Part shown: positions 59,244 to 60,354 of the stretch, piece after piece
How the letters are laid out: the number at the start of each line of letters is the position of its first letter
How positions within the stretch are numbered: position 1 is the stretch's first letter
Source of the DNA: Armillaria gallica
Lineage: Eukaryota; Basidiomycota; Agaricomycetes; Agaricales; Physalacriaceae
Direction: 5' to 3'
Assembly: GCA_037576215.1 (NCBI GenBank)
Contig: JBANDB010000012.1
Span: 1,736,001 to 1,800,000, forward strand
Length of the DNA: 64,000 nt
Position numbers and translations under genes: made by a program
The notes under the pieces: generated by a model
What the model was told of the DNA's origin: nothing
Seen by the model: only the letters and a program-made list of their open reading frames with translations
The model's database searches: none

Positions 59244-60354
59244 ATGGCCGAAGGCAGCAACTACGACTATCTCTTCAAGGTCGGTCTTTTCGCCGTTCGA
59301 TGGTCGAATTAATGTTCATTTTTATTGTTTCAGGTTGTCCTCATTGGTGACTCTGGCGTCGGGAAATCGTGGGTTATTCTTGTCTCTTTTTTACTCTGCT
59401 TTAACCATAATCTACAGAAACTGTACGTTACGGCGAGATTTATCAAGGCGGTTTACTTTGAGCTCAATGTCGTACCATTCACTCAGTGCTTTCGCGGTTC
59501 ACACGTAACGAATTTAATTTGGAGTCAAAGTCAACAATCGGTGTCGAGTTTGCAACACGTTCAATAAATGTCGATGGAAAGACTGTTAAGGCTCAGATTT
59601 GGGATACAGGTGTGTGCCACTTTTCTGTTTGTCGCCTGGCACACCCCTTTCAGCTTTTCCCGGAAAACTCGTTCCATTTTCGCTCTTTACCACGCCAGCT
59701 CTTCTGTTCCATTCAAACATTTTCTGATTTACGTTTACTAGCCGGGCAGGAGCGTTACCGAGCAATCACATCTGCGTCAGCACTCCATCAAACGTCTTAT
59801 TCAGACGCAGACTCACTGACATATCATTGTTTCTTGTCTACAGCTACTATCGGGGCGCTGTCGGTGCCCTGTTAGTCTACGACATCGCCAAGCACGCAAC
59901 CTATGTCAACGTCACAAGATGGCTGAAGGAACTGCGGGATCACGCCGATTCAAACATTGTTATCATGCTGGTGGGAAACAAGAGCGATTTGAAGCACTTG
60001 AGGGCAGTGCCAACGGATGAGGCAAAGGCGTTTTCAGGTACGCAAGCTTTCATCTTACGTTTACTGCCCAAGTGCTAACCAAAAATGTCAGTGGAGAATG
60101 GACTGTCATTCATAGAAACATCAGCGCTGGACGCTTCGAATGTCGAATCAGCTTTCCAAACTATCTTGACCGGTATGTGCTTTTGTACTTGCGCCCATCT
60201 TGTGTGTTCTGATGTTGGAGCAGACATCTATCGTATCGTATCAAGCAAAACCCTTGAGGCGTCTTCTACCCCAGCTGATCAACCCACAGCGGGCATCAGG
60301 GTCGATCCAAGTCTTCCTTCAGATTCCGCTGCTGGATCCAGCAAGTGTTGTTAG
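59244..60354 (+). CDS. Rab11/Ypt3-type GTPase
   Basis: Eight exons: 59244-59279, 59334-59368, 59418-59422, 59487-59609, 59742-59775, 59844-60037, 60093-1 (60092)-60172 and 60224-60354. They total 639 nt for 212 aa. It is a small GTPase of recycling-endosome/late-Golgi traffic. Motifs: P-loop GDSGVGKS, switch I STIGVEF, WDTAGQERY, NKSD and ETSALD, and a C-terminal dicysteine SKCC for geranylgeranylation. Exon 3 is only 5 nt (AAACT). It is needed to give the family sequence SNLLSRFTRNEF across the second and third introns. MAEGSNYDYLFK is a typical fungal Rab11 start. All motifs are intact, so the gene is probably functional and essential. Confidence 0.93.

What the first reader, a model, noticed from the sequence alone, without database searches (positions are those of the whole stretch)
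59369..59486. 5-nt microexon in the Rab11 gene
Joining exon 2 (ends ...GKS, phase 2) directly to the LSRFTRNEF exon breaks the frame. Including AAACT (59418-59422), bounded by TCTACAG and GTACGT, restores exactly the invariant GKSNLLSRFTRNEF. The Rab11 stubs at 5.1 and 48.5 kb keep the same ACAG-AAAC(T/C)-GTAC context. A 5-nt exon is near the lower limit of what spliceosomes handle and would be missed by gene predictors.
Basis: partly seen in the sequence, partly recalled or inferred. Interest (0 to 1): 0.8.

Follow-up and report, generated by a model that had tools for sequence, protein, structure and literature searches.

The report
Five-base microexon in mushroom Rab11 gene
The only Rab11 gene found in this honey-fungus genome appears to carry a five-base exon that is needed to keep its protein in frame; tiny exons like this are already known, but this one seems to be shared by other mushrooms and is sometimes missed in their public gene models.

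Summary
In the one intact Rab11 gene found in this Armillaria-like genome, exon 2 and the LSRFTRNEF exon cannot be joined in frame. Of 112 one-intron and 1005 two-intron chains tried, only one gives GKSNLLSRFTRNEF; it uses AAACT at 59418-59422. The spliced 212-aa protein is identical to an annotated Armillaria gallica protein, so public annotation probably already contains this exon.

Relatives argue better. In 13 of 100 fungal genome-annotated Rab11 proteins the N-L residues are lost between intact GKS and (L/V)SRF, against 0 of 70 proteins from short, probably cDNA contigs. This suggests an old arrangement that gene callers sometimes miss. The sample is enriched: two of three searches used deviant queries, and the first search alone shows no significant excess (4 of 71 against 0 of 46).

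Fungal exons of 1 nt and 6 bp are published, so this is a new member of a known kind. No RNA evidence was available.

The parts
59244..59279 (+). Rab11 exon 1 (MAEGSNYDYLFK)
59280..59333 (+). intron 1, 54 nt GT-AG
59334..59368 (+). exon 2, 35 nt, ends in phase 2 inside the Ser codon of GKS
59369..59417 (+). intron 2, 49 nt, GTGGGT...TCTACAG
59418..59422 (+). 5-nt microexon AAACT: completes Ser, encodes Asn25, first base of Leu26
   Evidence: only solution of the splice enumeration; protein identical to P0003; inclusion in mRNA not shown
59423..59486 (+). intron 3, 64 nt, GTACGT...CACTCAG
59487..59609 (+). exon 4 (LSRFTRNEF...WDT), entered in phase 1
59742..59775 (+). exon 5, 34 nt
59844..60037 (+). 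exon 6, 194 nt
60092..60172 (+). exon 7, 81 nt
60224..60354 (+). exon 8 to stop, C-terminal ...SSKCC
5053..5244 (-). Rab11 5' stub (decayed fragment), microexon AAACT|GTACAT
   Evidence: L023
15873..16079 (-).
   Evidence: L024
48365..48558 (+). Rab11 5' stub, AAACC|GTACGC
   Evidence: L027
55880..58399 (-). DUF6535 (PF20153) open reading frame divergent from the intact Rab11 gene

Best explanation
AAACT is a real, constitutively included 5-nt microexon of the Rab11 (Ypt31/32, ypt3) gene. Two short canonical GT-AG introns (49 and 64 nt) flank it and are recognised by intron definition. Because the 3' splice site of intron 2 and the 5' splice site of intron 3 are only 5 nt apart, they probably cannot be occupied at once, so the introns are removed one after the other (inferred). 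Inclusion supplies the end of the P-loop Ser codon, Asn25 and the first base of Leu26. Skipping shifts the frame and reaches a stop after six further codons, so inclusion should be efficient (inferred). The arrangement is probably old (inferred from annotation errors in relatives): two introns lie five coding bases apart in a nearly invariant motif, which would hold the exon sequence fixed.
For: Only one of 1117 splice chains gives the conserved motif. A site with full consensus flanks appears in 2 of 20,000 shuffles. The spliced product matches Rab-11A chains over residues 5-183 of 212 (E 2.4e-102), and the whole 212 aa are identical to an annotated Armillaria gallica protein. Matches above 90% identity in the assembly lie at this locus only. 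In 13 of 100 fungal genome-annotated homologues the N-L residues are replaced between intact GKS and (L/V)SRF; in 9 of 13 the residue after Ser is Y or C, as expected when a TC|GTAY or TC|GTGY donor is read through; 0 of 70 short-contig proteins deviate.
Against: No RNA read, cDNA of this species or genomic DNA of a relative was available, so splicing itself is not shown and the structure in relatives is inferred from proteins alone. The base before the intron 3 donor is T, not the usual G (consensus recalled). In the first, unselected protein search the errors at this site are not significantly enriched (4 of 71 against 0 of 46, Fisher p 0.15); counting indels alone they are 2 of 71, against 3 of 71 at intron 7 and 1 of 71 at intron 4. 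One of the 13 deviants (P0161) does not fit an exon 4 starting with TG, and Mycena leptocephala, M. galericulata, Termitomyces and C. cinerea also have an intact listed protein, so some deviants could be paralogues or strain differences.
Confidence: 0.94

Rival explanations
1. No microexon: one longer intron is removed and the mature protein differs from GKSNLLSRF at this place.
For: 11 of 112 one-intron chains stay open and keep LSRFTRNEF, for example GKSWVILVSFLL-LLSRF with a GC donor; other residues at this place are deposited for 13 listed relatives.
Against: 0 of 112 one-intron chains give the conserved motif. 168 of 181 listed homologues have GK[ST]NL[LR]SR[FY], including 70 of 70 short-contig, probably transcript-derived proteins. 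Rab-11A chains of the PDB have the same GKSNLLSRF (two alignments seen).
Confidence: 0.03
2. The microexon is alternatively spliced: a skipped form with an early stop tunes Rab11 level through nonsense-mediated decay.
For: Skipping gives a stop after six further codons; a regulated microexon is reported in a filamentous fungus (Trichoderma Xlr2, PMC11121469, abstract and passages seen).
Against: No RNA data. I found nothing that points to regulation, but made no search for regulatory motifs. No second intact Rab11 was found, and Rab11 is generally essential (recalled).
Confidence: 0.08
3. Stwintron or recursive splicing: the two introns are one nested unit with no exon between.
For: Two short introns lie 5 nt apart.
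Against: Five bases must stay in the mRNA to keep frame and motif; a stwintron leaves none (definition recalled).
Confidence: 0.02

Closest known systems
One-nucleotide exon of Fusarium CYP621A (Nelson and Syed 2026, PMC12940212; two of three parts of the text read, the third not opened)
   Same: Fungal microexon inside a conserved protein motif, inferred from incompatible exon phases, missed by gene models
   Different: 1 nt, ascomycete P450, supported by SRA reads (18 shown in the paper); here 5 nt, mushroom Rab11, no reads
P450 microexons of Phanerochaete chrysosporium (PMC1184071; abstract and body passages seen)
   Same: Basidiomycete; short exons (shortest listed 6 bp) with frequent small introns
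   Different: A large, varied P450 family; here a strongly conserved housekeeping GTPase
Plant microexons of 15 nt or less (PMC8831610; abstract and passages seen)
   Same: Conserved, often misannotated or missed; includes 1-nt and 5-nt cases checked by RT-PCR sequencing
   Different: Plants; found with RNA-seq across species
Trichoderma Xlr2 microexon switch (PMC11121469; abstract and passages seen)
   Same: Microexon in a filamentous fungus
   Different: Included or skipped by growth condition; no such evidence here

Membership tests
microexon (internal exon of 15 nt or less) | very short sequence flanked by canonical AG and GT splice sites with workable introns on both sides | tested here: met
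   TCTACAG|AAACT|GTACGT; introns of 49 and 64 nt, the gene's seven modelled introns being 49-132 nt
microexon (internal exon of 15 nt or less) | needed for reading frame and conserved residues | tested here: met
   unique solution of 1117 chains; skipping frameshifts
microexon (internal exon of 15 nt or less) | present in mature mRNA | not testable with these tools
   no RNA reads held; indirect: identical annotated Armillaria protein P0003, intact junction in 70 of 70 short-contig homologues
microexon (internal exon of 15 nt or less) | conserved exon-intron structure in orthologues | tested here: inconclusive
   no relative's genomic DNA obtained; inferred from 13 deviant proteins at the same residues
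Rab11/Ypt31 GTPase | GDSGVGKS, WDTAGQE, NKSD, ETSA and a C-terminal CC (motif roles recalled) | tested here: met
   spliced sequence; best PDB matches are Rab-11A and Rab-11B
stwintron | no exonic sequence left between the two introns (definition recalled) | tested here: not met
   5 nt required in the product

The most novel reading that the evidence does not exclude
An obligatory 5-nt exon has been held at the Rab11 P-loop since before Agaricales and Polyporales split, and its inclusion is regulated, so that skipping (frameshift and decay) works as an off-switch for Rab11-dependent secretion.
Probability: 0.07. Interest if true: 0.65.

Novelty: new member of a known kind. Interest (0 to 1): 0.4.

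Why it matters
It adds a clear, easily tested case of an ultra-short exon in a strongly conserved housekeeping gene of mushrooms. It also points to a recurrent annotation problem: 13 deposited fungal Rab11 proteins listed here probably have a wrong P-loop flank, which would mislead phylogenies, structure models and constructs. If the structure is as old as it looks, Rab11 is a good natural substrate for asking how intron definition copes with splice sites 5 nt apart.

Tried and rejected
Genomic DNA of relatives: viral contigs gave no confirmed match, and genome contigs gave one archaeal MAG match at 43% (L028), not used. Stubs as conservation evidence: rejected, since the microexon decays like the introns (the first alignment had minus-strand loci in the wrong orientation and was discarded). 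The 13-mer ACAGAAACYGTAC genome-wide: 9 places against 23 for the reversed control, so the 6 outside the Rab11 cluster are uninformative. Other Rab-like matches in the genome were not examined for exon structure.

Papers: no report of a fungal Rab11 microexon appeared in the listings of the searches 'microexon+fungi', 'microexon+basidiomycete', 'micro-exon/Rab11/fung', 'microexon+Coprinopsis', '5-nt exon/5 bp exon/tiny exon/mini-exon/basidiomycet', 'micro-exon/microexon/Armillaria/Agaricomycetes/Agaricales', 'microexons/misannotat/intron definition/fung', 'microexon+mushroom' and 'Rab11+microexon'. Several listings were cut to the best 8-25 hits, for most hits only the listing was seen, and most subscription journals are not held. 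In two Cryptococcus papers (PMC8022950, PMC3990503; passages) the word occurs once each, as a read-mapping option.

The contrast of 13 of 100 with 0 of 70 must be read with its bias. Each protein search lists only the best 120 of about 8000, and searches were run with deviant proteins P0095 and P0105 to enrich for deviants. The short-contig group was sorted by hand from the listings (jgi, lgn or ena only, contigs 750-2245 bases; DNA not seen). Nine animal or plant proteins, one Glomeromycete (P0159, kinship recalled) and P0176 (6.3-kb contig) were left out.

Full report
What is there. The window lies at C12:1736001-1800000 of an 86-Mb, 28-contig assembly. The gene at 59244-60354 (+) is modelled with eight exons and seven GT-AG introns of 49-132 nt. 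The spliced product is a 212-aa Rab11: the best solved relatives are Rab-11A (E 2.4e-102 over residues 5-183) and Rab-11B, and it is identical over its full length to 'ras-domain-containing protein [Armillaria gallica]' (P0003). The organism is therefore an Armillaria, probably A. gallica or a close relative (inference). A protein search of the whole assembly finds matches above 90% identity at this locus only, the others being 64% or less. A DNA search with the 5' part of the gene finds eight further, partial copies.

The microexon. Exon 2 ends two bases into the Ser codon of GKS; exon 4 is entered in phase 1. Joining them directly gives GKSAFAVHT and a stop. I enumerated one-intron and two-intron chains over 59340-59515 with GT-AG, GC-AG and AT-AC ends, introns of at least 20 nt and a middle exon of up to 60 nt. 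None of 112 one-intron chains and one of 1005 two-intron chains gives GKSNLLSRFTRNEF, and that one uses AAACT at 59418-59422. A site of the form AG-NAAYY-GT, which is what the protein needs, appears in 97 of 20,000 dinucleotide shuffles of the interval; with pyrimidine-AG and GTRNGW flanks it appears in 2 of 20,000.

The stubs. Eight partial copies, three of them inside the window, match the gene from exon 1 (query positions 1-23) to positions 203-214 of the query, that is into intron 3, and lose the match there. Identity to the gene, gaps left out, is 84% in exon 1, 81% in intron 1, 90% in exon 2, 76% in intron 2, 32 of 40 bases in the microexon and 82% in the first part of intron 3. The microexon is not better kept than the introns, and by eye on that alignment only 4 of 8 copies still fit NAAYY. 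The stubs therefore say nothing about the function of the 5 nt. They are explained by their neighbourhood: in each of the eight cases, and at the intact gene, a DUF6535 (PF20153) reading frame or a protein-level match to one lies divergently upstream (four window ORFs confirmed by Pfam; the five copies beyond the window by tblastn with one of those ORFs). The DUF6535 genes were probably amplified together with the shared promoter and the first part of Rab11 (inference).

Evidence from relatives. Three protein searches (each lists the best 120 of about 8000; the last two used deviant queries) listed 181 distinct proteins. 168 carry GK[ST]NL[LR]SR[FY]; 13 do not, and in all 13 the two residues N-L between intact GKS and (L/V)SRF are replaced by 2 to 12 others. 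By the listed names they come from Coprinopsis cinerea AmutBmut, C. marcescibilis, Marasmius fiardii, Mycena olivaceomarginata, M. pura, M. leptocephala and M. galericulata, Tricholoma furcatifolium, Termitomyces sp. J132, Amanita rubescens, Volvariella volvacea, Trametes gibbosa and T. sanguinea (Agaricales, and Polyporales for Trametes; orders recalled). Other listed proteins of C. cinerea (P0041), M. leptocephala (P0019), M. galericulata (P0037) and Termitomyces (P0056) are intact, so those four deviants are errors, paralogues or strain differences. In 7 of 13 the residue after Ser is Tyr and in 2 of 13 Cys, as expected if a TC|GTAY or TC|GTGY donor at the Armillaria position is read through. 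In 9 of 13 the residue before LSRF is Val and in 2 more Leu, as expected if an exon starting TG follows (codon reasoning, inference). P0161 (Phe before LSRF) does not fit, and P0162 has further changes around the site.

All 13 are among 100 fungal genome-annotated proteins; none of 70 proteins listed only from contigs of 750-2245 bases deviates (Fisher p 0.0008). These 70 (209-231 aa) show no indel against ours before residue 180. Many of their contigs are shorter than the 1111 bases that the Armillaria gene spans from start to stop, so they are probably cDNA contigs (inference; their DNA was not seen). In the first, unselected search alone the contrast is 4 of 71 against 0 of 46 (p 0.15), which is not significant.

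Controls. Ordinary introns of this gene also attract annotation errors. Counting indels near each junction in the 71 genome-annotated proteins of the first search, there are 2 at the microexon, 3 at intron 7, 1 at intron 4 and none at introns 1, 5 and 6; in all 100 there are 10, 5, 4, 0, 1 and 4 (microexon, introns 7, 4, 1, 5, 6). So frequency alone does not single out this site in the unselected set. The kind of error does: the ordinary ones that I saw aligned (P0005, P0007-P0009) are plain insertions with both flanking motifs intact, whereas at the microexon conserved residues are lost, as expected if their codons touch neither neighbouring exon. This is why I read them as a shared microexon. 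The inference is indirect, since no genomic DNA of a relative was obtained.

Mechanism. Shown: sequence, phases, uniqueness of the solution, consequence of skipping. Inferred: inclusion in mRNA, sequential removal of the two introns under intron definition, and age. No second intact Rab11 was found and its product is a general secretion GTPase (recalled), so inclusion should be near complete. A regulated off-switch by skipping is possible but nothing here supports it.

Known kinds. Fungal microexons are in print: a 1-nt exon in Fusarium CYP621A with read support (PMC12940212), exons down to 6 bp in Phanerochaete P450 genes (PMC1184071), a condition-dependent microexon in Trichoderma (PMC11121469). 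Small plant microexons are conserved and often misannotated (PMC8831610). The searches listed under Tried and rejected showed no report of this Rab11 case. It is a new member of a known kind, with the added interest that it appears to be shared among mushrooms and is probably wrong in some deposited models.

Noticed in passing
G000:C12 1741053-1892409 (window 5053-5244 -, 15873-16079 -, 48365-48558 +, and five copies beyond the window, L020, L021, L022, L025, L026): Eight truncated Rab11 5' fragments in a cluster of about 150 kb, each divergent from a DUF6535 (PF20153) reading frame or match; the five copies beyond the window lie 12.7-14.1 kb apart in one orientation, like a tandem array in which Rab11's 5' end was co-amplified.
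   Followed up: partly
window 7098-10091 (+), 16978-19437 (+), 45058-47544 (-), 55880-58399 (-): Four long DUF6535 open reading frames (819-997 aa) in one window, about 69-81% DNA identity between their regions over the main matches: a locally expanded family of unknown function.
   Followed up: partly
window 29335-29922 and 42227-42814: A 588-bp direct repeat at 99.5% identity bounding about 13.5 kb with long reading frames and A-over-T skew: looks like a young LTR-type retroelement; not examined further.
   Followed up: no
P0007 (Armillaria nabsnona), P0008 and P0009 (A. borealis), P0005 (Desarmillaria ectypa): Public Rab11 models with apparent retained intron sequence at intron 4 (P0007) or intron 7 (P0008, P0009), or one extra residue at intron 7 (P0005), although the microexon junction is right.
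   Followed up: partly
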